From assembly GCA_958510875.1 (NCBI GenBank), contig OY294069.1, positions 434,001 through 498,000 of the forward strand: 64,000 nucleotides of DNA. Direction: 5' to 3'. The DNA comes from Endomychus coccineus (taxonomy: Eukaryota > Arthropoda > Insecta > Coleoptera > Endomychidae). The notes beneath the pieces are model-generated. The model was not told where the DNA came from. It was given only the letters and a program-made list of their open reading frames with translations, and searched no databases. A program made the position numbers and the translations under genes. Numbering within the stretch: position 1 is the stretch's first letter; every line of letters begins with the position of its first letter. Of this stretch, positions 1 through 44,235 are shown one piece after another.

Positions 1-478
1 AAATGTTTGTATTCTGTTGAATTCACACACTGATTTTATCATTTTACTCTTGTAATATATATTGATATAAAAACTCTTATGAGTTTATTTTATATAATTA
101 TGAATTATTATTAATTCTTCCGGCTAGCTTTTATTTGTATTTTAAATCTTATGTTTGTTTTGATTTGAGTAATCTAATGATTTGAATAATGAACTTTTAC
201 CTTTTTATTTTATATCTATGGAATTAAACACAATGTTCTTTGAATATTAAAAACTTTTATATTTAAATTTCTATGACTCTATTTTTTATCTCAGTATTAA
301 TTTTAACAATTTTATGTTCAAATAGATCTATGATCTAACCTCAAAATTATTCACTATTAATATTTGTTTACAAAGTTATAATCTACAATCTTTCTTTCAG
401 ATTTACAGACAGATAATAATACAATGGAGAAATAACAAATAAACTTACGTTTAGTTTATATCCAAGAATATGTTTTTT
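1..478. other. AT-rich unassigned sequence
   Basis: Very AT-rich sequence without a convincing ORF or recognised repeat. I see nothing that supports a gene. Confidence 0.5.
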
Positions 479-1200
479 AAAATGTAGGCAATGTTCACTT
501 GGCTTGATCTTCTTATTAATTTGATAATTCACTTTAACCGTAGGTACACAATTTCTTTGATATACACAAATTACAGGTAAACAATGTGGTTACTTCTTTA
601 GAAATCAGGAACTGTTGATAATTGTTTACTTGTCTTATTCTTTTTCAAAAGATATAAAATCTTAAATGATGTATTGGAACGTTGTCGAAGACTAACTATT
701 ATACGATGCTACTTGTGAATTATGGTTATAATAACTTTTAAAAACTTTGTTCGAAGACTGGGAATACTACTTGACTTGTATAAATTACTTATTTGCTTCG
801 GTTACTTTCAACCTTACGAAGCTATTGGAACACTTGGGTTCACCGATGTTTATCCAAAAACTAAGGTTATGGAAATCTTTTGAGTAGCTTGAGTATCTTG
901 ACTCTTCAGATGTTGATGGCTAACTAACTTGGCTTGTCTTCAGATGCCTTTTATAGGCCTTCAAAAAGGACGCCAAGTATTTTCAAAAATAACCAATGAG
1001 GTGCTTAGTTTACCTATCAAGAATGCTTTGTTCATTGTTGAAAACTGACAGAACTATTACATTGTTACTAATCTGACGTCTATAAAATTGCATCGACCAA
1101 TCAGAATTTAGTATTCTTCAAATTTTTAATTATTGGAGATTTTCAACTTATTTTAAGTGATAATGATTCCTTCTTTTTAAATTCATATTGCCTACATTTT
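479..1200. mobile_element. TIR-bounded element or solo LTR, about 0.72 kb
   Basis: The ends are perfect inverted repeats: AAAATGTAGGCAAT at 479-492 and its reverse complement at 1187-1200. Read from 483 to 1196 the unit begins TGTAGGCAAT and ends ATTGCCTACA, the TG...CA form of an LTR with 10-bp terminal inverted repeats. It has no ORF of note. A TATAAAA-like string lies near 1081. No clear target duplication can be read because the flanks are A and T runs. It could be a solo LTR or a non-autonomous TIR element; I cannot decide between them. Confidence 0.45.
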
Positions 1201-1770
1201 TCCACACACTTTGGTATAAGATAACATATGATTAGGTTATTATTAATATGATTATTCCTATAATTATTATAAATTGGACAGTTGTCATTATTAAAAACTA
1301 ATACATGATATAATATATCAATAACATTTCTTTAACATTATATAATTCAAATTTACTAATCCTAACTTATATCTACAACATTTTTCAATAGTTTGTGCTA
1401 TCTCATGATAGTTTTTGTAATCATTTTAATTATGATTTCTGCCTTCGTAACACTGTACGTTTATTCACTTTCACTGAAGTTCTTGTTTTACACTTTTATT
1501 CTAATTACAATGTTGTTTATTATGTTTTACATTGTTCATTATATTATACTAACTATTATTTAACTTTTAATATTGTTTTTAATTCCATATAATATCTTAT
1601 TATTAATCTTTTCTGATTTTCAATATTCGGTAAGTTCTAATTTTATCATTTTATTGTTTAGGAAATGAAATCATAACAATATGTATATTCTATTTTGTAT
1701 ACATTACTATATAATTATGTGTTCGTGACTTTATTATGCTTGTGAGAATTTGATTGGCTATAAAGAAACT
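1201..1770. other. AT-rich sequence, possible LINE 3' tail
   Basis: This is AT-rich sequence with no convincing coding capacity. It runs into an ATT microsatellite, which is how the LINE 3' ends in this window finish, so part of it may be a plus-strand LINE 3' UTR. That is inference only. Confidence 0.25.
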
Positions 1771-1771
1771 C

Positions 1772-1789
1772 ATTATTATTATTATTATT
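1772..1789 (+). repeat. (ATT)6 microsatellite
   Basis: Six ATT units in a row. The same triplet terminates the LINE at 42116-43995 (as AAT on the plus strand), so this may be a retrotransposon 3' tail. Confidence 0.8.
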
Positions 1790-1824
1790 ACCATAAAGAT
1801 TCTTGACCCAGGTGTGAATTATAT

Positions 1825-2040
1825 ATAAATTTTCTGGAAATAGGTCACATTAACACTTATGCTTTATATTTTCTCGTCTTTACATACGTTTCGGTCTCAC
1901 GACCATCATCAGAAGACTTATTATGTCTAAAACTGGATTATTCAAAACTAATTGTATTACACAAAGCGTCCTTATCGCACCAATCTCAATTGAAATGCCC
2001 ACGTCGCCGAAACGAACACAAACACGAATAATTGAAATTG
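1825..2040 (-). repeat. Penelope-type terminal repeat, copy A1
   Basis: This segment matches 10195-10395 and 41840-42035. Shared strings include GGAAATAGGTCACA near 1840, the block around GGTCTCACGACCAT, the AAAGCGTCCTTATCGCACCAAT block near 1965-1990 and CGTCGCCGAAACGAACA near 2002-2018. Read on the minus strand it carries a hammerhead-like motif. The copy at 10195 lies downstream of a decayed Penelope ORF in the same orientation, which is why I assign the family to Penelope-like elements. Confidence 0.65.
1876..1917 (-). ncRNA. hammerhead-ribozyme-like motif, family A copy 1
   Basis: On the minus strand the order is GTCTT (1917-1913), CTGATGA (1912-1906), one extra T (1905), GGTC-GTGA-GACC (1904-1893), GAAA (1892-1889), then CGTATGTA and AAGAC (1880-1876). 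GTCTT pairs with AAGAC as a 5-bp stem I. GGTC/GACC closes stem II with a GTGA loop. ACG/TGT around TA forms a 3-bp stem III with one G-T pair. Cleavage would follow A at 1881, a GUA triplet. All catalytic-core bases of the hammerhead consensus are present. The extra base between the core and stem II departs from the textbook motif, although a natural hammerhead with an extra base at that site is known (CChMVd plus strand). Penelope-like elements are known to carry such ribozymes. Confidence 0.6.
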
Positions 2041-4780
2041 TGCAAAAATTTATTGCATTTCAACAGCCAAAAAATGCATTTTTCTGAGTGCACTGTTTGA
2101 GGTGAACAAAAAAAACGAACTCGAATTGGTTTCTCGGGGGTTTTTGGGGTCGCCGATCACGAATATGATGTCCAAAAAAATCCTTGGACCATCCCCGTGA
2201 TATTTTTTAATGCTTTTCAACTGGTTGGAGTGGGGATAAAAGGTCGTTAATGATGATTACGACATGCAAAAACTTTCCTGCAATACCTGGGGATACCCGG
2301 AGACCGGATATCTACGTCATCTTCTAAGAATTCGTTATTTTTTCTTTATAATGGATACATCGCTTGCAGTCGATGTAATTCATATTATTTGGGCTTTCAT
2401 TTTACTAAATAAATAATCATAAATGAATAATTGTTGTATTTTCATTATAAAGCAAGCATTGAAACTTTGTTGTGGAGTGCACACAATCTTTTTAATATAA
2501 CAAATTCGATTCTACAGCGTTTCCTTATCTGGAGACTGTTGTCCGATGTACAATGTTCATGTCCCTATTCACCGTCTGTGTCTGTTGTTATCTGTTCCAT
2601 TCGATCTATACGAGTGCATTTTCTTCAATTGTCGCCGCTGATACGCGTTCTTCCACAACGTTGAGTCCGTAAGTAATATCGAATCGAATTTGAATCGATG
2701 TGGTAGATTCATCGTTTCGTAATATATCGTTTTACGGACGCAGCTGTTTGTGTTCAATCGAATTTATTTATTAATCGATATTGTAACTTTCATGTTTCAA
2801 CAGTAGGGCTTATGCTTTTTGAACAACAACTAAAAAAAACAGACACCGTGTGAAAATTATGAAGATATCATCCTCGATGCCTATTCTTTATTCATGAAAA
2901 TAAATTATTTACGGGAAATTTCTGATCAGGATATAATAACTTAGGATTTCATTTCATTTGTACATGCTCATGAATGTTCTTTTGACAAAACTGTGCTTAT
3001 AATGCACCCCAAAAATACAATGAATCTAAGCAGAGATCCTTAAGGGATTCTGAATAATGCATTTTGCATTTTTGATGATTTATTTTAATGAAGGTACAGA
3101 GAAGTAATTTCATAAATAAATCGGTTAATAACTTATCATAACAAATTTCATTGCTTACTTCAGGCAATTGTCAGAATCAAAAAATACTTTACTTTAATTA
3201 AGTTGGAGTTCAAGAGAAACAATTTTCATATCAAAAATTAATCCCAAACGGAGTAAAAGGGATTTAATATAAATTGACGTTTATGACTGCTACTATAATC
3301 ATGTACAATCCACATGACAGACAGATTTGTAGATTAATGGACCATTATCACAGTCAACAGTCAAATTATGTCCATGACAGACCATTCCATAACATAGATG
3401 TCCCTTCTACATGACATAGAGTATAATTTTACGTCTTCCCACGCTTTTTGTTTCTACTCATTTAAAATATGCATTAAATAATGAAACGTGTGGGTGCCTT
3501 TTTCTACCGGTATTAGCTGTTTCTGCTGAAGCATCCGGCGGACAACAGCTAGTGTATGTATGAAACCTTATTGATGCTGTCACGTGAATCGAGCTACGTT
3601 TTTTTAAAGGAATTCCGTTGTTCTAAAATCGATAAACGAATGTCAAAACGATCTTGCATATAAGTTTACCAACCTAAAAGGTTCGCAAGCAATGAAAGCG
3701 TGCCAATTAAGCCTCAGCACGAACTGTTTGGCGCCTGCGATGTCTGCTCGATTATTTTATCAGATACAAACGTTGGCGTTAACAACAAATTAACAGCATA
3801 TTAAATTGCCGATATTGTATTCAATCGAAGACACTGTTACCACCTTATTCTGGTCACTTTTCGCCGATTGCATCCGCTCGAGAAATCGAAGATAATTAAT
3901 TGTGAACATAAATGAAAATCATGAAAACGTATTAAAATACTGCATTAAAAAAATATCACGGCTGTTTTCTTTTAGTATCACTTTAATCTTGGAATGTGCT
4001 TCCAAAGAAGTTAAAATGTCTGTTTGACCCTCTTATGTATTTGGCAGACGAATTGTCAGAAAACTTCAAACTCAATAATCGTTACCGAGATCCCTGAAAA
4101 TGTACTTAAACCTTTTAACACCTCTGGAAAGAGAATGTTGACGGCGGGAGTTTAATGCGATATAAAAGTTAAGACACGAGACGCGAGTGCGTAAGTTTAA
4201 AATCAAATACGAACGAGTTTTTCAACAGCTTTACGTGATTTATGAAGTTGACTGCTACCGGATTTGCATAAATACCATTTCGTCATTGGAACCATGTCGG
4301 AAAATGTAATCACGTCTTTGTTGGACGTTCAATAAAACGAAACGGCTTGCACGTAGTAACATTCTTATTTGAATTATTGTCGGTATTAACCGATATTTCT
4401 GTTGTGCGTCTGATAATGGTGCGTTCGAATTAATAGTGGACATTTCGACTGGAGATATGCCATTTTAGAGACAACGTAAAATTATATAGGAATATGGGAA
4501 TGTAATATTTTGTCAAAGTAGCAACTACCAACCTCCTTGAAGCTAAATGGGTCTTCATATATTCCAATAACAAATGTAAGTAGAGAAAGATAAATGAAAT
4601 ATTTAGTGAAAAACGTGCTGAGTTGAGGTTATCTCATATTGAAACATTTGAATAAAACACCTGACTTCAAAATACATCAAAAGTGATGGAAACAATGAGA
4701 ATATAGAATACTTCTTTCTTACAATCAACTATGATATCTTGAAGAGCTTGATGTTAGCACTAAACGGTTTTAGTTCAAGC
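2041..4780. other. unassigned sequence
   Basis: No recognisable gene or repeat. The segment near 3480-3780 is less AT-biased and of higher complexity than its surroundings, but it has no long ORF. Short ORFs here do not resemble known proteins. Confidence 0.4.
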
Positions 4781-4915
4781 CTCGAGCTTAAAATCCTAAA
4801 GAAACCACCTGTAAAGGTGGGCGAAACGTCGGCACCGAATCTCTGGCGCGAGATCTATCCGGAAGTCAAGAATTTTCAAATAACTTTGTCTTCAAGATCG
4901 GAATAAATAAATTTC
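4780..4915 (+). repeat. possible degraded hammerhead-like/Penelope tail
   Basis: CTAAAGA followed by AA, then CCACC (4805-4809), a TGTAAA loop, GGTGG (4816-4820), GC and GAAACGTCGG. The order is the one seen in the other hammerhead-like motifs of the window, but the core carries G-to-A at the third position and stem II has extra bases. I cannot link it to a coding region. Confidence 0.3.
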
Positions 4916-6190
4916 TAATCATCTCTATGTTCGACGTCCAATTGCATAATGAAAAATAATGCCCAATACGTTATAATCTTCTAATCACTAGAGAAAATCA
5001 TCTAATTATCCAGTTGGCACCTACTTGCTTTACTCCTGGGCTTGTTTGTTAGTAGAGGAGGTATAGAGGTGATGTTTGTCCTTAGGATAGTTCGATTAAT
5101 AAGTAATTAAAATTGAAGAAGCTATTACAATCATTTTTGTCGTACTGCAGTGCCAAGGAATGTTAATAATATCCATTTGTGAAGTAACTTGGCAGCCTTT
5201 CATTTATGGAGTCAATATGAACAATTCAAGTGTTGCAATGTCTAGAAAAAAGACAATGATTGCTGTTAATAAAATATATTAATTACTTATGCCACTGCAT
5301 AAAGGTAATTTCTGGAACGATCAAAAAACCACATACTTCTATTGTACTTCGCTGTTCCATTCTTTAATGGAATAATTCCAGAGAATAATCAACAGCTGAT
5401 TATAGTTTAGTTTACACTTTCACCCTTTTACCACTTAAAATTGTAACTTGTCTGAAGCACTTTTCAACTGCGATGCAGTTATTATTTTCAGTGGAAAAAG
5501 GGTGATAGTATAAATTAAATTATATTATATTACATTCCACATTGTTAGTTGAATAGTATAGTTGAAATTTTATAGGATACAACGATTGTTGTTGTTGCAT
5601 TAGTTGTGATATGTTTTTCACTGTAAAGCGTCATCACTTGTAAGAAATAAAATCTTATAAGAATATCCGGGGTTTCGATTTAGACTTTCGTCATTGGAAT
5701 CTCGGGGAGTATAAGATATATTCGAAGATGGTTAAATTGGGGTGAAGTTGCGTATCGGCGAGGCCGATAATATTCCGTTTAACAATTGAAGTTATCTGTG
5801 GCACTTCCTGGAAAGTGGCGGAAAAACTGAAATATACGGTTTTTTTTCAAAGGTTAGATGAAATCCATAAACACTTTCTCTTTGGACTTTTCGAGCTTCA
5901 TCTGTTGGCGAAGTTGAAAATCCTCTAAAACGTTTCGTTCTTCCCAAATCGTCATCAACTTTATTTGTTTTTATGGTCGCCATATTGAATTTTTGCAGTT
6001 TCTATTACCTTTTTTATGATGTATCACAAGTTACCCCTGTAGTCTCAAAAATCACAAACATTAAAGAAAAGTTGTTATATCATAGTAGGCAATCTTTCAC
6101 ATGTAAACTAATTGCACCACTTTGGTTAACATATTGGACTACACATCCAGGAATGTGTGATTCAATGTTTTTCGTTTATTCATCTTGATA
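4916..6190. other. unassigned, with a weak inverted repeat
   Basis: No gene recognised. An imperfect inverted repeat lies at about 5409-5440 and 5484-5518. Its arms share CACCCTTTT and its complement AAAAAGGGTG, with TTTACACT against AGTATAAA. It may be a small fold-back relic. Confidence 0.3.
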
Positions 6191-6815
6191 ATCTTATCGC
6201 TAAGAAATAATCACCCTTATCCACTATACATACTATTAAAGAACTGAGGACCTTTCGGCTATCAAGTAGCCATCATCAGAGTAAACTAAATCATAAATCA
6301 AAATGTGCCTGTTTAAATACTATTTGGGGATACTAATGTGAACAGTGAGTTACCCTCAGGTGGAGATGAATCGGAATTTAATACATTGCTTTTGTGTTTA
6401 TACATTTTCATCATTTCTAAATTACTTAGATACTGTCTGTACTGTGTTTTAAGAGTGATAAGCTTTCTTGAGAAATGGTGTGACTTGTATTCAAAATATG
6501 TTCAGCTACCGTTGATTTTTCACCGTTATCTTTTTTTAATGGGCAAAATGTTCCTTATAACGAGTTAAAATGTTACTTTCAGTTTGACCCACATAGAATT
6601 TAGAACACGACACACAATTGACTTTGTAAATCCCGGATTTGTCGAAATCAGAAACTTTATCAAAGGTGTTGCCTAAGCGGTGTTCTCACATCCATAAGCT
6701 GGTTGTATTGCAAATGTAGAAAACTAACTATGGAATTTATTAATTACTGAAGAATGGTAAGTGAAACCTCTCAATTTTATTGAAGTATTTGAAGTTGGTG
6801 GCTCTAATTTGGCTA
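6191..6815 (-). pseudogene. decayed Penelope-like element, GIY-YIG region
   Basis: Reverse translation of about 6540-6700 gives a readable GIY-YIG endonuclease start: SGIYKVNCVSCSKFYVGQT, followed by RYKEHFAH. GIY-YIG nucleases of Penelope-like retroelements nick DNA for target-primed reverse transcription. The continuation is broken by stops and frame changes. The segment ends in a terminal repeat with a hammerhead-like motif in the same orientation. A homologous decayed segment lies at 19121-19580. The plus-strand ORF across 6338-6568 is a shadow of this fragment. Confidence 0.7.
6241..6283 (-). ncRNA. hammerhead-like motif, family C
   Basis: Minus strand: ACT, CTGATGA (6279-6273), T, GGCTA-CTTGA-TAGCC, GAAA (6256-6253), then GGTCCTC and AGT. 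Stem II is a perfect 5-bp hairpin. Stem III can form as AG(G)/(C)CT. Stem I has three pairs, ACT/AGT. Cleavage would follow CUC. It lies downstream of the Penelope GIY-YIG fragment and in the same sense. Confidence 0.45.
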
Positions 6816-6979: not shown

Positions 6980-7085
6980 TAGGTTACTCTGATGATAACT
7001 ACTTGGTATTCGAGAGGTCTCAGTACTTTAATAGTATTTTTAGTGGATACGGGTAATTATTTCTTATCAATAGTGTTATCATATA
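6980..7085 (+). repeat. inverted second copy of the family C terminal repeat
   Basis: It is homologous in inverted orientation to 6195-6285. Shared features are TACTCTGATGAT, ACTACTTG, the AGTACTTTAATAGTAT block, and ATTTCTTATC near 7065. CTGATGA is intact at 6988-6994, but stem II has decayed. Together with the minus-strand copy it brackets the Penelope fragment as an inverted pair. Confidence 0.55.
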
Positions 7086-7198
7086 TCCACAGTGTGGACT
7101 CTTTTATAATTTATTAATGTTGATAATCCTATGTTAAATTATCTAAGTTTCATGTATAATTCAGAAAATTGAATTCTATACGACTATGTCTTAATGTA

Positions 7199-7677
7199 CA
7201 GGGTGTCCCATTTTGGGTACTTTTGCGAGGTATCTCCTTTATTTTTAAAGATAGAGAGTTGCGGTTTTCGCGACACTGTGCTACTTTTTCGTAAAACTCA
7301 AGATGCCGTCAACAGAATTTTCATAACCCTTTTAGTTTTTAAGATACAGGGCATTTCTGAAAATGTTGCATTTTGTGACCCCCCTCGTATCTCCGTTATC
7401 CTTCAACTTATCGAAAAGGTAAAATAACATTCTAATAGTTTTTTTTTCGTAGAATGCAGTGGTGTAGATAACTTTTGTTACATATTTACTGTTTTTGAGT
7501 TATATAGCAAACTTATGTTTTTTTAAATGGAACACCCTGTATATTTATAGACTATAAAATTTGTCTTTTTTTTACCTTTTCAAAAATATATGATAGTATA
7601 AACTTTTTTTCAGAAACACGCAAATAATTGACAATTTTTAGAAATTAAATACATATTTTAATAGTAGGCCATTGATA
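7199..7677 (+). repeat. left inverted arm of the long-arm transposon
   Basis: It is an inverted copy of 9044-9485. Within it, 7199-7539 is itself bounded by CAGGGTGTCC and GGAACACCCTG with TA at 7540-7541, so the outer 341 bp has the form of an independent MITE. Confidence 0.85.
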
Positions 7678-7789: not shown

Positions 7790-8892
7790 ATGGCAGTTTA
7801 CGAAAATTATGAGAAATATGATATGATGGTATGTTTTATACAGAGTAATGAAAATTCTGAAGAAGCTTCGGAATTATATTTCCAAAGGTGAGTAAGCTAT
7901 TATGGCTATGAAAATCTCTATTATCATTTTAATTTTTGCTTGTTAGATATCCAGAAAGAAAGCAACTGTTTTTTGGGATATTTGTCCGTTTAAAAGCAAA
8001 TTTAGTTGAGCACGGATCATTTGTTCACCCGCGCCCTAAAACATACAACAAAGAGAACAGGGAAAGAAAAGAGATAGATACTTTAGGATATATAGAAGCA
8101 ACATCTTCGTCCTCATGTAGAAAAATTTAGAAGGAAATTGGTGTGCCAAAAACTAACGCTCAGAGGATCTTGAAGAAATATAAGTATCATCCATACAAAT
8201 TTAATATACTACAACGCGGGGCACTGTTTTGCCAGTGGTATTTGCAACAAATCGATGCTAACGATTTATTTGGCAGACTTGTTTTCTGGTCAGACGAATG
8301 CTTTATTTCAAGTGCTGGCATTTTCAATCGTCACAATACCAGGAACTGGCGTAGTGAAAATCTGCATTTAATGTTTGAAAGGGCACAACAAGGACGCTTT
8401 GGAGTTGAGGTTTCATGTTTTATTTTGGGTAGACATATAGTTTATAAGATTTTTGAAGGAGGTCTTACAGCACGTAGATACCTAGAAATTCTTGAGGAAG
8501 TTATTCCAGAACTGCTCGAAAACATTCCATTAGCCCAGTATAATGCTGTTTACCTACAGCAAGATGGTGCCCCAAGTCATAACTCTAGGCTCTTAAGGGC
8601 CTTTCTAAATAATAACTTTCCTCAAAGATGGATAGGTACCAACGGACCTGTTAGATGGACTCCACGATCACCAGATCTCTCAATTTTAGATTTTTTTTTA
8701 TGGGGTTATATACAAAATGAAGTATATAAAACTCGATATGACGGCATTGCAAAACTTCGAGAGGCAATTCATTTAGCTTTTCGAAATCTGCGAATGAGAA
8801 CAATGGTTCTTTTGAACGCTATTCAAAGAATCTCAAAGATGTGCCAATTTTGCATTAGAGAAAATGGTGGTCAATTTGAACATCACATTTAA
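7790..8892 (+). pseudogene. DDD transposase, two exons, one premature stop
   Basis: It encodes a cut-and-paste transposase. Exon 1 is 7790-7887, starting at ATG with MAVYENYEKYDMMVCFIQ. The intron is 7888-7946 (GTGAGT...TTGTTAG, 59 nt). Exon 2 continues in frame from 7947. The N-terminal part has the helix-turn-helix pattern of insect mariner-like transposases, and SSSSCRKI...KEIGVPKTNAQRIL is the second DNA-binding helix. A TAG at 8128-8130 interrupts it. The catalytic Asp residues are in FWSDECF, QQDGAPSH and ILDFFLWG; 41 residues separate the last two, a DD41D spacing. The total would be 347 codons, close to full length. One nonsense change apart, the gene looks intact. The start is chosen because exon 1 joins in frame at a canonical donor. 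Confidence 0.85.
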
Positions 8893-9043: not shown

Positions 9044-9485
9044 TATCCATAGCCTACTATTAAAATATGTATTTAATTTTCTGAAAATTGTCAATTATTT
9101 GTGTGTTTCTGAAAAAAAGTTTATACTATCATATATTTTTGAAAAGGTAAAAAAAAGACAAATTTTATAGTCTATAAATATACAGGATGTTCCATTTAAA
9201 AAAACATAAGTTTAATTTATAACTCAAAAACAGTAAATATGTAACAAAAGTTATCTACACCACTGCATTCTACGGAAAAAAATCTATTAGAATGTTATTT
9301 TACCTTTTCAAAATGCAACATTTTCAGAAATGCCCTGTATCTTAAAAACTAAAAGGGCTATGAAAATTCTGTTGACGGCATCTTGAGTTTTATGAAAAAG
9401 TAGCACAGTGTCGCGAAAACCGCAACTCTCTATCTTTAAAAATAAAGGAGATAACCCGCAAAAGTACCCAAAATGGGACACCCTG
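9044..9485 (-). repeat. right inverted arm of the long-arm transposon
   Basis: It is the complement of 7199-7677. The outer part, 9183-9485, is again bounded by CAGGATGTTCC and GGGACACCCTG with TA on both sides, giving a 303-bp MITE-like unit. Confidence 0.85.
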
Positions 9486-9489
9486 TACT

Positions 9490-10190
9490 TAAACGGAATT
9501 GTGGCTAATTAGGTAAATTACTGTATTTCCTTTTCATTACAGCTATCGGGGTAGTAAAATTTGATAACACTTCAATGCTGTTCGATGCACTCGTGCTGCT
9601 GTATTTCGTCAAATATTTCCAATTGATTGATCGTAGATGGTTACGACACTTATTGTTATAAATTTCGATACTGCACTTGATCCAATCAGCGACATTCCTC
9701 GAACAGGATCGTTGACGCCTGATTTGGCATTTTTCATTCACAATAATAGTCAATAAATAACCTTATACGATCTCCATTTGATAGACATTCTTTGTTTTAT
9801 TGTGAATTACATGAACTTTGTTCACTGGCAGATTTAATTGAATACTATAAACCTTCAAACTCTTACTAGCGAATTGCATCATTCGAATTTACAATCGATA
9901 TTGTGCTTTCGTTACTGGCACGGCCGTTTAAATTCGAATATTCTAGAGAATTCCATGCCATAACACGTACTGAGCTATTTACTTTAATATTACACAGCGC
10001 AAACCAACCAGCTTCTTTATAGTTACGTTCACCAAAAGAATTCAATTTAGGCATAAAGCACTGGAAAGTTTCTGAAGCTAACGTCTTTTCCGTGCGTAAT
10101 AACAAAGTAAGGTACCTACTGTAAAATATTGAATGTTCTTGAGTTGTAGTTCCAAAAATTGGTAATAGCTATTTTCACTTTGTTCCATTA
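9490..10190. other. unassigned sequence
   Basis: Moderate complexity with short minus-strand ORFs (9505-9753, 9866-10105) that resemble nothing I recognise. No repeat copy was found elsewhere in the window. Confidence 0.35.
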
Positions 10191-10194
10191 CTCT

Positions 10195-10395
10195 TCATCT
10201 CAGATTAAATTCTGCATTATCGTCTTTACGTACGTTTCGGTCTCACGACCATTATCAGAAGAAGTATCATTGTATAAAACGTGATTTCTTAAAACTAATT
10301 GTATCACCACAAGGCGTCCTTATCACACTAATTGCAATCGAAACTGCCTACGTCGCCGAAACGAACAGAAACACGAGCAATGGAAACTATGACAC
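10195..10395 (-). repeat. Penelope-type terminal repeat, copy A2
   Basis: Matches 1855-2035 and 41880-42035, including the CGTCTTTACGTACGTTTCGG block and CGTCGCCGAAACGAACA. It lies about 0.3 kb beyond the GIY-YIG end of the decayed Penelope ORF on the same strand, and this identifies the family. Confidence 0.65.
10222..10264 (-). ncRNA. hammerhead-like motif, family A copy 2, core mutated
   Basis: Same layout as 1876-1917, with a perfect stem III (ACG, TA, CGT) and stem II GGTC-GTGA-GACC. The core reads CTGATAA, not CTGATGA, so the guanine that acts as general base or acid in hammerheads (G8 position) is lost. Stem I has four pairs. I infer that this copy is inactive. Confidence 0.5.
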
Positions 10396-19120: not shown

Positions 19121-19810
19121 TTGGGATATGTTCAGGATGGTACAAAATATGCCAATTTCTCTTTCCCTTATACATTTCTATCCCTTGTAAGTTATCTAGA
19201 TATTTGTCGTTATTGTGTTACAAGAGTGCTAAACTTTATTGAGAAATGGTATGACCTGTATTCAAAGTATGTTCGACTAAGGCAGTTGTTTCATCATCAC
19301 TTTTCTTTATCTGGGTAAAATGTCTTTACACTCAGTTAAAATATGTACCACTTTGGCCCACATAGCATTTTGAACACCATTCACAATCGATTTTGTAAAT
19401 TTTGGATTTGTCGAATTCGGAAACTTTATCGAAGGTTTTTTTAGCTTGTTTTTACATGTATAAACTGGTTGTATTGCAAATTTAGAAAACAAATTATGGA
19501 ATTTATTATTTACTGAAGAATGATAGGTGGAACTTTTGAATTTTTTTTGAATTTGAAGGTAGTGGCTCTAATTTGGTTAATTGGAACGCAACCTCCAATT
19601 TCCTTAACCAAATTAGAGCCACGTGTTCAAAATGCCATGTGGGCCAAAGTAGTAAACATCAAAAAAAATCAGATAGCTGAGGGTAATCCATTATATATAA
19701 ACTATTAATTCTAAAAAGTATTTTCTAATTTAATTTACGCTGATGATGGCTACTTGGCGGCTGAAAGACCCTTAGTCCTTTAACAGTATTTTTAGTGGAT
19801 GAGGATGATT
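19121..19810. mobile_element. fold-back Penelope fragment
   Basis: The left half on the minus strand (about 19340-19460) reads KIYKIDCEWCSKCYVGQSG, a GIY-YIG domain start homologous to the fragment at 6540-6700. From 19601 the same sequence resumes in the opposite orientation on the plus strand: GTGTTCAAAATGCCATGTGG at 19622 corresponds to the complement of the minus half near 19365. The junction hairpin has arms GTGGCTCTAATTTGGTTAA (from 19563) and its complement near 19604-19622. The plus half leads into a CTGATGATGGC terminal motif at 19740. Confidence 0.7.
19739..19790 (+). repeat. degraded hammerhead-like motif, family C
   Basis: CTGATGATGGCTACTTGG at 19739-19757 matches the family C core at 6241-6283, but stem II is broken (CGGCTGAAA where TAGCCGAAA is expected). 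The downstream CAGTATTTTTAGTGGAT also matches 7030-7050. Confidence 0.5.
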
Positions 19811-20220: not shown

Positions 20221-21513
20221 TCCAAAAATGAGTTTTATATCAAAGATTCTTGGGATTTCAAGGAATTCATTAACAAAATTACAATACCTAAAAACTATAT
20301 CTTAGTATCACTAGATGTCACATCTTTATATACAAATATCCCTTTAGAATTAGCTAAACAAATAATTCAAAATAAATGGGATGAAATAAAACTATATACA
20401 AATTTACCTATGAATGAGTTCTTAACAGCTATAGAATATACATTCACCGCTAATTTTTTACAATATAAAGATGATTGTTATAAACAATTAGATGGTTGTG
20501 CAATGGGCTCTCCAATATCAAGTATCATAGCCCAAATAGTAATGGAATTCCTTGAAAAAAAAGTAGTATCTCAACTAAATTATAATATAGCCTTCTTCAA
20601 AAGATATGTTGATGATTGTATTGCTGCAATCCCTGAAAACAAATGTAATGAATTTTTGAATTCTTTCAATTCCTTTCACCATAAGTTACAATTTACAATT
20701 GAATTAGAAAATCATAACGAAATAAATTTTTTAGATTTAACTTTAGTAAGAAAATCAAATGATAACAAAATTCTAACAAAATGGTATACCAAACCTACTT
20801 GGTCAGGAAGGTATACTAATTTCAATTCTAATATACCTAAAAAATATAAGAAAAATGTTATTATAAATCTAATAGATAGAGCTATTCGACTAAGTTCTCC
20901 TGAACTGAGAACTATATCTATTACAAAAACAAAAGAAACTTTAATAAGAAATGGTTATCCCATTGATTTAGTAAATTCGATAACTAAAGACAAAATTCAT
21001 AAATTTTATAACTCATTTGGTGGAATCAATACCAATAATGAGAAAACTAATGATAGGCATTACATATCACTACCATATATCAGTGGACTTTCAGAGAAAA
21101 TTTGTAATATAGTGAAACCTTATGACCTACATATATGTCATAAGAGTTATTTAAATCAGAAAAGTCTCTTTACAAAATTAAAAAGCAGCGTACCTTTCAA
21201 AAAAATAACCCATACTGTTTATTCCATCCCTTGCAAAGATTGCGAAAAGGTATATATTGGCCAATCTTCACAATACCTCGAAAAAAGATTAAATGGCCAC
21301 AAATATACCAAAAATTCATCAACTGCGCTCAATAAACATGTGAAAGACACTAACCATACTTTCGACTACAACAATACAAAAATTTTAAATATTGAAACAA
21401 ACGACAACAAACGTTTGATATTAGAATCTATTCAAATTAAAAAGAACAATTGTGTAAATGACAAAATAGATTCCAATCTTTCGAAACTGTACAATAATCT
21501 AATTCAAACTTAA
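20221..21513 (+). CDS. Penelope-like retroelement, RT + GIY-YIG, 5' truncated
   Basis: An open frame of 430 codons. The stop at 20218 precedes it and the first ATG is at 20410, inside the RT domain, so the 5' end of the element is missing. RT motif A is visible upstream of that ATG as LVSLDVTSLYTNIPL. Counting from the 20410 Met, motif B is AMGSPISS (31-38) and the catalytic box is YVDD (66-69). A linker follows with LPYISGLSEKI near 221-231. The C-terminal GIY-YIG nuclease has the CKDC pair at 275-278, YIGQ (282-285), Arg 293 and the conserved Glu 339. These proteins copy the element at nicked target sites. A hammerhead-like motif lies about 0.42 kb downstream. This is the best-preserved Penelope copy of the window. 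Intact elements also have an N-terminal half that is absent here. Confidence 0.92.
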   Translation, partial: SKNEFYIKDSWDFKEFINKITIPKNYILVSLDVTSLYTNIPLELAKQIIQNKWDEIKLYTNLPMNEFLTAIEYTFTANFLQYKDDCYKQLDGCAMGSPISSIIAQIVMEFLEKKVVSQLNYNIAFFKRYVDDCIAAIPENKCNEFLNSFNSFHHKLQFTIELENHNEINFLDLTLVRKSNDNKILTKWYTKPTWSGRYTNFNSNIPKKYKKNVIINLIDRAIRLSSPELRTISITKTKETLIRNGYPIDLVNSITKDKIHKFYNSFGGINTNNEKTNDRHYISLPYISGLSEKICNIVKPYDLHICHKSYLNQKSLFTKLKSSVPFKKITHTVYSIPCKDCEKVYIGQSSQYLEKRLNGHKYTKNSSTALNKHVKDTNHTFDYNNTKILNIETNDNKRLILESIQIKKNNCVNDKIDSNLSKLYNNLIQT

Positions 21514-22130
21514 CAAAATTTTATTAATTTGAAGTACCACTTTCCATTGTCTATTTAAAATTCAACCTAAAAAAAGATGAAGTATTATTTAAGTATGACA
21601 CTATAGAGTAACAATTTTGAGGTTAAATTCCATAGAATTATCTTAAACTTGAATAGTTATGATAGAAATACTTATCATAGAGTAACTAATTCATACAATA
21701 ATTCATAGATATTTATAATTGTACAATATTGGAATGTCTTGTATTTAATCAAATTCAATCTATTTCAAATTGTAGTTAGCCATACATTACTCTTTCACTC
21801 ACAACCGATCCAATGTTTTCTGCAGTTTTAATTGGATCTTAAAACACAAGTCGGCTGCAGACGCATTTCATTAATCGAAATCATCTATTCTTTTCTAAAT
21901 TACATGGAAACACTAATTCAATTAACAATTTTTGATAAAGGCAATAAACGTTGTCGAAACGTCAAAACAGAATTTTTATTTCATTATCAGTATATATACG
22001 AACCAATATACCAAGAAAACATACAAATATATATATATATCGGACATTTTATGACGTTTTTCCATTTCCTAAAGCTATTAACCTTACCGATGATGGCTAA
22101 CACGAGGGTTGTACGCTGAAACTACGACAA
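21514..22130 (+). repeat. 3' flank of the Penelope element
   Basis: AT-rich 3' region of the element. It carries a degraded hammerhead-like motif at 21929-21967 and a second, weaker CGATGATGGCTAAC...CGCTGAAAC string at 22088-22126. An ATATAT run sits at about 22028-22040. Confidence 0.5.
21929..21967 (+). ncRNA. hammerhead-like motif, family B, degraded core
   Basis: TTGATAA, extra A, GGCAA-TAAACG-TTGTC (stem II, five pairs with one G-T), GAAA, CGTC, AAAA. The end GAAACGTC would place cleavage at a GUC triplet, and TTTT before the core pairs with AAAA after it as stem I. The core differs from CTGATGA at the first C and at the catalytic G, so this copy is probably inactive. Confidence 0.5.
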
Positions 22131-41839: not shown

Positions 41840-42115
41840 AATATATAAATTATCGGGAAATAGGTCACACTAACACATATGCTTATTATTTTCGTCTTTA
41901 CGTACATTTCGGTCTCTCGACCATCATCAGAAGATGAATCAATGTCTGAAACGGGATTTCTTTGAACCACAAGCACAAAAAGCGTCCTTATCGCACCAAT
42001 TTCTGTCTGCAGTGCATTGCGATGACTTGATCTTTTCGGGAATGATTGGAAGCCATTTCGACTTAGAGAAAGTGAATTGCGTGTACTCTCATTTTATGAG
42101 GAAGACTAATTGTTT
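41840..42115 (-). repeat. Penelope-type terminal repeat, copy A3
   Basis: Homologous to 1825-2040 and 10195-10395 (GGGAAATAGGTCACACTAAC, GGTCTCTCGACCATCATC, AAAAAGCGTCCTTATCGCAC). It is truncated on its right by the LINE tail at 42116. Confidence 0.7.
41894..41934 (-). ncRNA. hammerhead-like motif, family A copy 3
   Basis: Minus strand: ATCTT, CTGATGA, T, GGTC-GAGA-GACC, GAAA, TGTACGTA, AAGAC. The core is intact and stem II is closed by a GNRA loop. Stem III is ATG/CGT around TA, with T-G and G-C pairs. Stem I has four pairs. Relative to copy 1 the stem III bases have changed but pairing is kept. Confidence 0.58.
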
Positions 42116-42136: not shown

Positions 42137-43995
42137 CTTTATTTCAACATGGTTTGTCTACATTTAAAAAATAAACATGAACAATACAATATTAAAAAAC
42201 GTCGTAGTAACTATATGTATATACACTTCACTACATATATATACATATATAAACAAATAATAAATGATATAGAAACACTATCACCGTAAAATGTTAGCAC
42301 ATACTATACAGACTTATTGTTCTAAAAAATCTGCAACTGTATAAGGTTCTAAAGTTATAAGCAAATTAGTAACAGCTGCTTTGAATTTTTTTAATTCCTT
42401 AATCTCTTTAATCTCTTTTGGAAGTTTGAAGAAAAGCTTAAGGCTCATGTATTCCATATTTTTTTGATATAATGTTAAGTCAACCTCTAGGTAAAGATAT
42501 AAAATCTTACGAGTTTCATATACTTGTCCGTTTTCATACTCTGACGAATAGTGTTTGTTCCTGAAGTTGAACATAAGACTTTCCGAGATATAAAGTGCCG
42601 GAACAGTTAAAATATTGAATTTGCGAAAAGTACCTCTACAGGAGTTTCGATGCCTCAAGCCATAAATTATGCGTATTGCCATTTTTTGTAGAATCAAAAT
42701 CTGTTTAGATTGAGAGCTGTTGCCCCAGAAAGTAATCCCATAAGTTATCAGAGACTGAAAAAAGGCGTAATAGACAACCATTAGAGTTTCCTTGTCCACC
42801 GATTTTTTTAAAGTTCTTAATACGTATAGTTTAGATTTAAGTCTGTTTGAAAGAGATGTTATTTGTTCATACCAATTCAAATTTTTGTCTATAATAAGTC
42901 CCAAAAATTTAGTACTATTATCTACGTCAATAATTTGGTTATTCAAAGTAAGAGTTTTTGGAATTTCAATATTCGACTTATTAGTTTGAAAAATCACACA
43001 CTTTGTTTTTGACTTGTTAATTACAAGTTTATTGACTTGACACCAATTTTCAATCTCTGTCAGCACTAGGATCAACTCCTGATTCAAATTCTCAATATTG
43101 TTACTTTTAATGGCAACATTCTCGTCGTCCGCATAGTTTATCGAGGTATGACCACTTTCCGATATTATTATAGGCAAATCATTGATAAATATTAGAAAGA
43201 GAAGAGGCCCTAATATAGAGCCCTGTGGCACTCCCATTTCAATATATTTTGTTTTTGATATGTATTGGTTCTGGTCTGAGTTCATTTCTACAACTTGGTT
43301 TCTATCTTTTAAGTAGCTGACTATAATTGACAACTGTTTCCCTCGTATACCGTAATTTTTCAGTTTTTTGATTAAAATTGTGTGATCTATACAGTCAAAG
43401 GCTTTGGATAAGTCTAAGAAAATTCCACAAGGTATCTCTTGATTATCCAAAGCCTTTAACACAAATCTAGTAAATTCGAAAACAGCTGTCATTGTACTTC
43501 GGCCCCTAAGAAAGCCATGTTGACTTTTGTTAAAAATTTTGAATTTTGTAGAAAAACCTACTAATCTGTGACTCAAAATTTTTTCTACCAGTTTGGCAAA
43601 AACGAAGCAAGTAGGCTAATAGGCCGATAGCTACCCAAGTCCTCGCAGTCTCCTTTTTTATACAAAGGCTTTACTATTGCTACCTTTAAAGCGTCGGGAA
43701 ATATACCATTTTCAAATATACAATTTATAATATGACATAATATTTTTTGTATTTTTGTTAATGAGAATTTAAGAATAGTTAGGGGAATGCCGTCAACACC
43801 AAAACTAAACTTATTTTGCAGCTGATTACAACTCTTTATTATCTCATCTTCTGTGACTGGATAAAGATAAAGACTATTCGACAGAGGTTCAATGGGACAA
43901 ACATAAGGTTCTTGATTATTTTTATCATTGTATAACCTTTTTCCAGAGTTTATAAAGAAAACATTAAAATCGTTTCGAGTTGAGTAAATATCGAG
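42137..43995 (-). pseudogene. LINE (jockey/CR1-like) with long RT ORF, 5' truncated
   Basis: An open 420-codon frame runs 43576 to 42314. It reverse-transcribes the element RNA at a nicked target. From the first Met, FLDLSKAFD (53-61) is motif A, GVPQGS (115-120) motif B and YADD (148-151) the catalytic box. FLGLIIDKNLNW follows near 223-234. The thumb reads YGITFWG. The true reading frame began further upstream: FNVFFINSGKRLYND, GVDGIP and KKGDCEDLGSYRPISLLASF are read from 43960 to 43610 in another frame, with one frameshift near 43600. The 5' end, including the endonuclease domain, is missing beyond about 43995. Among the LINEs here this copy has the longest undamaged RT. Confidence 0.9.
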
Positions 43996-44235
43996 TAGTA
44001 ATAAATATATAGTTTGTATTGCTAGTGCTGCCCTATAGAAATTGTTCGAGTAAAATTGTAGATAAAAAATTATAGGAGGGTCGACTTAGAGTTGACTGTT
44101 CATAATTCAACTATTGAAAGGTTGATTTTCACTGATTTTACACATTATTACAAAATACTGAACTGTAATATCTACTTTCCATTTAGCAGCTTGACCAGAA
44201 ATTAATTCAGCCAAAAATGTAATTATTCTACTATA

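What the first reader, a model, noticed from the sequence alone, without database searches (positions are those of the whole stretch)
1876..1917. Complete hammerhead-ribozyme fold in a Penelope-type terminal repeat
By eye this minus-strand 42-mer forms stem I (GTCTT/AAGAC), core CTGATGA, stem II (GGTC/GACC, GTGA loop), GAAA, and a 3-bp stem III around TA, with a GUA cleavage site. Only one extra nucleotide after CTGATGA departs from the consensus. Penelope-like elements are known to carry hammerheads. The specific variant, extra base included, may be uncatalogued.
Basis: partly seen in the sequence, partly recalled or inferred. Interest (0 to 1): 0.8.

Follow-up and report, generated by a model that had tools for sequence, protein, structure and literature searches.

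The report
Dimer-type hammerhead motif in Penelope retrotransposon
The 42-letter sequence is a copy, in a truncated fragment, of a small hammerhead-ribozyme motif that sits in the terminal repeat of a Penelope retrotransposon, a known kind of self-cutting RNA that here exists in thousands of copies and appears to have been left uncut in the RNAs that were copied back into the genome.

Summary
Window 1876-1917 (minus) holds stem I, CTGATGA, one extra T, stem II, GAAA, a short stem III and GUA, on the sense strand of a Penelope-like element (PLE); this copy is a 5'-truncated 3' fragment. The source genome (906 Mb) has 13,007 exact copies of core plus stem II with one extra base and 2 without it. 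A second family has other, partly compensated stems. Among five PLE subfamilies the 42 nt are 99% identical, the flanks 61%. Stem III is palindromic (ACGUACGU) in 25 of 29 ungapped sampled copies, which fits published PLE hammerheads thought to cleave as dimers; as a monomer the fold is not complete. Insertions of one or two nucleotides beside the core are within known alignments, so this is a new member of a known kind. Most interesting: in copies picked by their reverse transcriptase, 28 of 29 element 3' ends lie 62-100 nt beyond the predicted cut, in two clusters, none at it; and 0 of 19 readable 5' flanks of full-ORF copies start at it. Reverse-transcribed templates were thus not end-processed by this ribozyme, as in vitro work on an Anolis PLE suggested. 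Self-cleavage itself was not testable.

The parts
1876..1917 (-). Hammerhead-like motif, family A copy 1
   Evidence: Sequence; R1 model 61.2 bits, but it is one of the model's own training sequences
1913..1917 (-). Stem I, 5' strand GTCTT
   Evidence: pairs with 1876-1880 AAGAC
1906..1912 (-). Core CTGATGA (C3-A9)
1905..1905 (-). Extra base (T) between A9 and stem II
   Evidence: 13,007 exact genome matches with one base here, 2 with none; 95 of 95 matches in the loci scanned have exactly one, 74 T and 21 A
1893..1904 (-). Stem II GGTC/GACC with loop GTGA
   Evidence: compensatory differences against family B
1889..1892 (-). Core GAAA (last A = A15.1)
1882..1889 (-). Stem III segment ACGTATGT; ACGTACGT, an 8-nt palindrome, in most sampled copies
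   Evidence: CGTACG in 25 of 29 ungapped copies of L001-L030
1881..1881 (-). H17 (A); predicted cleavage between 1881 and 1880 (minus strand)
   Evidence: inferred from hammerhead numbering (recalled)
1790..2037 (-). 5'-truncated PLE 3'-end fragment that carries the motif; long-tail 3' end beside an (ATT)n run on the + strand
   Evidence: both ends approximate
10222..10263 (-). Family A copy 2, core CTGATAA (G8 to A), predicted inactive
41894..41935 (-). Family A copy 3 (GGTCGAGAGACC, GAAATGTACG)
6241..6284 (-). Family B motif (TTACT-CTGATGA-T-GGCT..AGCC-GAAA-GGTCCT-C-AGTTC)
   Evidence: training sequence of R1
6984..7026 (+). Family B motif, degenerate, in inverted orientation to 6241-6284
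   Evidence: training sequence of R1
19735..19778 (+). Family B motif
   Evidence: training sequence of R1
20221..21513 (+). Penelope ORF remains: RVT_1 and GIY-YIG
   Evidence: Pfam above cut-off for both; 48% identical to the L068 ORF
21929..21968 (+). Third, degenerate motif (TTTTTGATAA-A-GGCAA..TTGTC-GAAACGTC-AAAA), 416 nt after the end of that ORF
   Evidence: 13.9 bits, E 0.41; letters; assigned mainly by position, weak

Best explanation
It is a minimal type I hammerhead ribozyme of the kind carried by Penelope-like retrotransposons, here in a truncated 3' fragment. In a tandem relative with open ORFs (L068) it lies on the coding strand, about 405 nt after the ORF end and 121 nt (cut to ATG) before the next unit's first in-frame ATG (SHOWN). 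Stem III is too short for a stable monomer, so two motifs most likely pair through the palindrome ACGUACGU into a double hammerhead and cut after GUA (INFERRED; folding energies). In a transcript that crosses tandem units (period 2,965 nt) this would separate unit-length RNAs. Reverse transcription that made the genomic copies began about 60-100 nt past the cut, on RNA that had not been cut there (end positions SHOWN; the step to the RNA is inferred). The cut is therefore not what makes the template ends. Cutting either releases messenger units, or happens later or in a protein-gated way, as reported in vitro for an Anolis PLE (PMC11167929, its main-text section read).
For: Sense strand and element: 30 copies share a 3' region and lose homology at varied 5' points. 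Longer copies carry RT/GIY-YIG remains upstream. L068 shows units identical over 1,636 nt at period 2,965, and its ORF is 48% identical to a window ORF with RVT_1 and GIY-YIG above Pfam cut-offs. Selection: 99.0% mean pairwise identity in the 42 nt against 61.2% in the other columns among five subfamily representatives; the best other 42-nt window reaches 85.7%. Structure: families A and B, 86% of cells paired, 5 of 9 pairs with both sides changed, covariation score reached by 0 of 500 shuffles and by none of the slid controls. Abundance: 13,007 and 2,920 exact pattern matches, reversed-pattern control 0 in both. Dimer fold near optimal.
Against: No cleavage was tested. Only 8 related sequences stand behind the covariation count, shuffles ignore relatedness, and one measure, further pair types, did not exceed shuffles (468 of 500). 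No hammerhead model reaches its Rfam cut-off. A base beside the core could lower activity: passages of PMC3088659 report low activity with an insertion after A6, and with a 2-nt insertion near C3 whose removal restored cleavage. Family B stem I is only 4 bp, and its link to a PLE was not shown. In the 110 nt after the cut no structure stands out (z +1.01).
Confidence: 0.8

Rival explanations
1. The motif is kept for another reason, for example as a binding site of the PLE protein or a DNA target, and the hammerhead likeness is ancestral with cleavage lost.
For: Genomic insertions keep the site uncut. An extra base sits beside the core in 13,007 exact copies against 2. In the Anolis PLE, catalytic mutants do not change insertion (PMC11167929).
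Against: Core letters (CTGANGA, GAAA, A15.1-U16.1, UH) stay while the stems differ between families A and B. Binding alone need not keep G8, G12 and the palindrome. The Anolis motif does cleave with protein.
Confidence: 0.13
2. A retrozyme or satellite (short non-autonomous tandem hammerhead repeat) rather than a PLE part.
For: Many short copies; type I hammerheads of animals often lie in retrozymes (PMC7229834, passages).
Against: Copies share a 3' region and extend into a RT/GIY-YIG ORF. The tandem unit is 2,965 nt, not the 150-450 nt of those repeats.
Confidence: 0.03
3. Chance likeness in AT-rich sequence.
For: A match of the motif grammar occurs in 2 of 200 shuffles.
Against: Thousands of exact copies, control 0; conserved block among subfamilies.
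Confidence: 0.01

Closest known systems
Small hammerhead variants of Penelope-like elements (Cervera and de la Pena 2014; Lunse, Weinberg and Breaker 2017: neither paper held, known here through passages and reference lists in PMC7761336, PMC6466107, PMC10085705 and PMC6155905)
   Same: Type I order, diminished stem III, palindromic stem III, PLE terminal repeat, tandem units, predicted action as dimers
   Different: One extra base between A9 and stem II in nearly every exact copy. Whether those papers list it could not be read.
Hammerhead of PAc, the Anolis Poseidon PLE (PMC11167929, main-text section read)
   Same: Cut site 26 nt after the A of A9-U-G in our T variant, the spacing they give from their start codon; insertion ends beyond the cut in two clusters; insertion independent of the cut in vitro
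   Different: In L068 the ORF starts 121 nt after the cut, not inside the motif; the extra base is A in one subfamily, so no AUG is kept there. Their sequence was not seen.
Newt satellite 2 / amphibian retrozyme hammerheads (PMC6155905 and PMC7229834, passages)
   Same: Short helix III, dimer needed
   Different: Short non-autonomous repeats, not a RT-coding element

Membership tests
Hammerhead ribozyme (type I) | Core CUGANGA ... GAAA | tested here: met
   1906-1912 and 1889-1892; both intact in 27 of 30 sampled copies (26 of 29 ungapped, plus L024 by its letters)
Hammerhead ribozyme (type I) | A15.1-U16.1 pair and UH before the cut, stem I open-ended | tested here: met
   A1889, U1882, A1881
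Hammerhead ribozyme (type I) | Three helices around the core | tested here: inconclusive
   Stems I (5 bp) and II (4 bp) present; stem III 2 bp as monomer, 8 bp as dimer
Hammerhead ribozyme (type I) | Reaches the Rfam gathering score | tested here: not met
   The low score fits the missing stem III and so weighs on the canonical families more than on the minimal PLE variants (inference)
Hammerhead ribozyme (type I) | Loop I-loop II tertiary contact | tested here: inconclusive
   5-bp stem I followed by AT-rich sequence, 4-nt loop II; contact not modelled
Hammerhead ribozyme (type I) | Self-cleavage | not testable with these tools
   needs bench work
PLE small hammerhead variants acting as dimers | Diminished, palindromic stem III | tested here: met
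   CGTACG in 25 of 29 ungapped copies, CGTATG in 3 including this one, CGTAGG in 1
PLE small hammerhead variants acting as dimers | Lies in a PLE with tandem units | tested here: met
PLE small hammerhead variants acting as dimers | Cleaves as dimer | not testable with these tools
   only folding energies
Penelope-like element | RT and GIY-YIG in one ORF | tested here: met
   Window 20221-21513 passes both Pfam cut-offs. The L068 ORF gave 0 Pfam families at 1e-3, but is 48% identical to it over 433 columns and shares the invariant columns of a 14-protein alignment
Penelope-like element | 5' truncation, tandem or inverted copies, optional 30-40 bp 3' tail | tested here: met
   two end clusters about 30 nt apart. 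Features as given in PMC8969392 (passages) and PMC11167929
Animal retrozyme | Tandem repeats of about 150-450 nt without ORF | tested here: not met
   unit 2,965 nt with ORF

The most novel reading that the evidence does not exclude
The extra base beside the core is a selected brake. In these PLEs the hammerhead is kept nearly silent on nascent and template RNA, so that multi-unit transcripts survive for reverse transcription past the cut site, and it fires only as a dimer or with the element's protein. Genomic insertion ends would then be a standing record that transposition uses RNA which escaped its own ribozyme.
Probability: 0.2. Interest if true: 0.65.

Novelty: new member of a known kind. 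Interest (0 to 1): 0.4.

Why it matters
[quoted passage not shown] Here is a genome with thousands of copies, several subfamilies and near-identical tandem units, in which the 3' and 5' ends of insertions can be read against the predicted cut site. In the sample read, they say that the cut does not make the template ends. The near-universal one-base insertion gives a single position whose effect on rate can be measured directly.

Tried and rejected
Rfam at gathering score, whole window: nothing. Permissive scan of 1-6000: five matches far below cut-off, four to microRNA models and one to a thermometer model, no hammerhead. Idea that the extra T exists to make the start codon ATG, from the PAc paper: not supported as the general reason, because one subfamily has A there and in L068 that frame stops after eight codons while the ORF's first in-frame ATG is 121 nt past the cut. 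Window 4801-4850, first suspected as another motif because of GGGCGAAACGTCGGC: left open, no CTGANGA, fold z -0.26. Other organisms: viral contigs pattern scans gave 0 and 1 contig with an unrelated motif; genome contigs gave 0; a PLE protein alignment in viral contigs gave no confirmed relative. Metagenome contigs were not open to scans. Species identity was not established; the one insect-named homologue among the 120 listed of 1,692 is from Coccinella septempunctata. Not answered, tool busy: genome counts for T alone, for a two-base insertion and for family B without the extra base. Papers not held. On rechecking I found that my first count of 62 insertion ends leaned on a biased sample (see full report); the headline count is now the 29 ends of the sample picked by protein.

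Full report
What is there. On the minus strand, 1917-1876, the sequence is GTCTT CTGATGA T GGTC GTGA GACC GAAA CGTATG TA AAGAC. A motif grammar finds it once in the window; 2 of 200 shuffled windows hold any match. Rfam does not list it at gathering score, and gives 18.3 bits to RF00008 (cut-off 48.5) when 96 nt are scanned alone. Two further copies of the same family lie at 10222-10263 and 41894-41935; the first has G8 changed to A. A second family with other stems lies at 6241-6284, 6984-7026 and 19735-19778.

Which element. A 217-nt query (1821-2037) had 4,190 first-look candidates in the source genome, 40 of them scored. The table has 42 rows: 40 cover the whole or nearly the whole query at 94-100% identity, the window itself included, and 2 are short pieces. 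Thirty loci share a 3' region and lose homology at varied 5' points. Longer copies hold remains of a reverse transcriptase and GIY-YIG ORF upstream on the same strand. A protein search scored 150 places of 19,181 candidates; many have an 830-codon open frame, some at spacings of 2,965 nt. L068 holds parts of two units that are identical over 1,636 nt. Its ORF is 48% identical to the window ORF 20221-21513, which passes Pfam for RVT_1 and GIY-YIG; L068 itself gave no Pfam family at 1e-3. In L068 the motif starts about 405 nt after the ORF end, and the next in-frame ATG is 121 nt after the predicted cut. Downstream of the window's own Penelope ORF, at 416 nt, a weak degenerate motif stands at 21929-21968 (13.9 bits, E 0.41).

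Is the motif kept as an RNA? Among one representative each of five subfamilies the 42 nt are 99.0% identical and the other 363 nt 61.2%; the best other 42-nt window reaches 85.7%. I chose the representatives by eye from the loci at hand. Copies within a subfamily say little, since they were picked as best matches: of 30, 27 have core and GAAA intact. Between families A and B (8 sequences; those of L030, L044 and family B typed in) 86% of cells pair, 5 of 9 pairs have changes on both sides, the covariation score 0.504 is reached by 0 of 500 shuffles, and slid controls reach at most 0.161; the count of further pair types does not exceed shuffles. Twenty family B copies show TTACT-CTGATGA-X-GGCTAC-TTG-GTAGCC-GAAA-GGTCCT-C-AGTAC as the usual form, with decay in many.

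The extra base. CTGATGA-N-GGTC-NNNN-GACC-GAAA has 13,007 exact matches; without N it has 2; reversed-pattern controls 0. In the loci scanned 95 of 95 matches have exactly one base there, 74 T and 21 A; a few of these loci overlap (left out of that count: L031-L038, L069, L090-L109). The pattern CTGATGA-N-SSS-N{3,9}-SSS-GAAA, which leaves out family A, has 2,920 matches, control 0; of the first places listed most are family B with one extra base and a few look like chance. So the base is a fixed part of the motif in this genome; for family B the count without the base was not obtained. [quoted passage not shown] In the Anolis element PAc the cut is 26 bp after the start codon and the ORF begins at stem II; in our T variant the A of A9-U-G is also 26 nt before the cut. 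I could not see their sequence, so the likeness is of spacing only.

How it would work. As a monomer the hammerhead fold scores -5.9 kcal/mol against minima of -9.9 (this copy) and -9.7 (common variant). As a dimer it scores -22.8 and -26.4 against minima of -23.4 and -27.0. The common stem III segment ACGUACGU is a perfect palindrome. This is the scheme given for PLE hammerheads in reviews (passages in PMC7761336, PMC6466107, PMC6155905; the primary papers are not held). A transcript over two units carries two motifs.

What the insertions say. I placed the 3' end of each copy against L068 (recounted; 67 rows, 2 more dropped because fewer than 130 nt were left in the locus). Two rows repeat a locus (L038 = L024, window = L001) and 3 run on into a next unit, which leaves 62 ends: 37 at +56 to +75, 23 at +91 to +101, one at +30 with a poor alignment (L050), and one, the window copy at 10222-10263, at +7. 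None lies at the cut. This set is biased: L001-L030 were picked by a query that itself reaches about 60 nt past the cut, so a copy ending at the cut could hardly enter. The fair sample is L039-L067, picked by their reverse transcriptase: 29 ends, of which 14 lie at +62 to +72, 14 at +91 to +100 and 1 at +30 (L050); none at the cut (read off). Copies that lack the motif altogether cannot be counted this way. The two clusters are about 30 nt apart, like the two reverse-transcription starts and the 30-40 bp tail of PLEs; PAc starts at 111-118 bp of its ORF, that is 85-92 past its cut (PMC11167929). I also fetched 20 flanks upstream of copies. One, L070, belongs to a 772-codon frame and was unreadable. 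The other 19 belong to 830-codon frames: 14 run through the motif to the end of the stretch fetched, 300 nt upstream, the other five begin at about -292, -262, -229, -224 and +18; none begins at the cut. Some of the 19 are neighbours in inverted pairs (L072/L080, L074/L089), so they are not all independent. In these samples insertions thus came from RNA that was not cut at the 3' motif, and 5' ends are not made by the cut either. A circular or re-joined RNA would give the same picture and is not excluded.

Verdict. A real, strongly kept hammerhead motif of the PLE kind; this copy lies in a truncated fragment. The kind is known; the fixed extra base and the genomic ends are the points worth a bench test. 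Cleavage is unproven.

Noticed in passing
L069:2256-2325 (-), IMG/VR contig IMGVR_UViG_3300010885_011310: A viral contig holds a motif with canonical hammerhead parts: GGTTAA-CTGATGA-GGGTTTAATACCC-GAA-ACGTACGT..ACGTGCGT-C-TTAACC (6-bp stem I, long stem III). Rfam RF00163 gives only 14.0 bits (cut-off 34), so Rfam at gathering score misses it.
   Followed up: partly
G000:C1:19530300-19534900 (L068) and other places: Tandem PLE units identical over 1,636 nt and many open 830-codon frames: the element family looks recently active in this genome.
   Followed up: partly
window 7191-7677 and 9044-9493, ORF 8131-8892: Inverted repeats of about 450-490 nt (ungapped pieces 94-97% complementary; 88.9% over 488 columns with gaps) around a 253-codon frame that looks by eye like a DDE transposase; Pfam found no family at 1e-3.
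   Followed up: no
window 5401-5524: Near-palindrome of 48-nt arms, 83% complementary, that attracts microRNA models on both strands far below cut-off; probably a small foldback element.
   Followed up: no
window 42314-44085 (-): LINE-type reverse transcriptase frames (the 42317-43615 frame hits RVT_1 at E 1.2e-30), on the same strand as the third family A motif copy and about 300 nt upstream of its element fragment.
   Followed up: no
window 4801-4850 (+): AACCACC-TGTAAA-GGTGGGCGAAACGTCGGC recalls (from memory) PLE hammerhead 3' halves with GAAACGTC, but has CTAAAGA instead of the core.
   Followed up: partly
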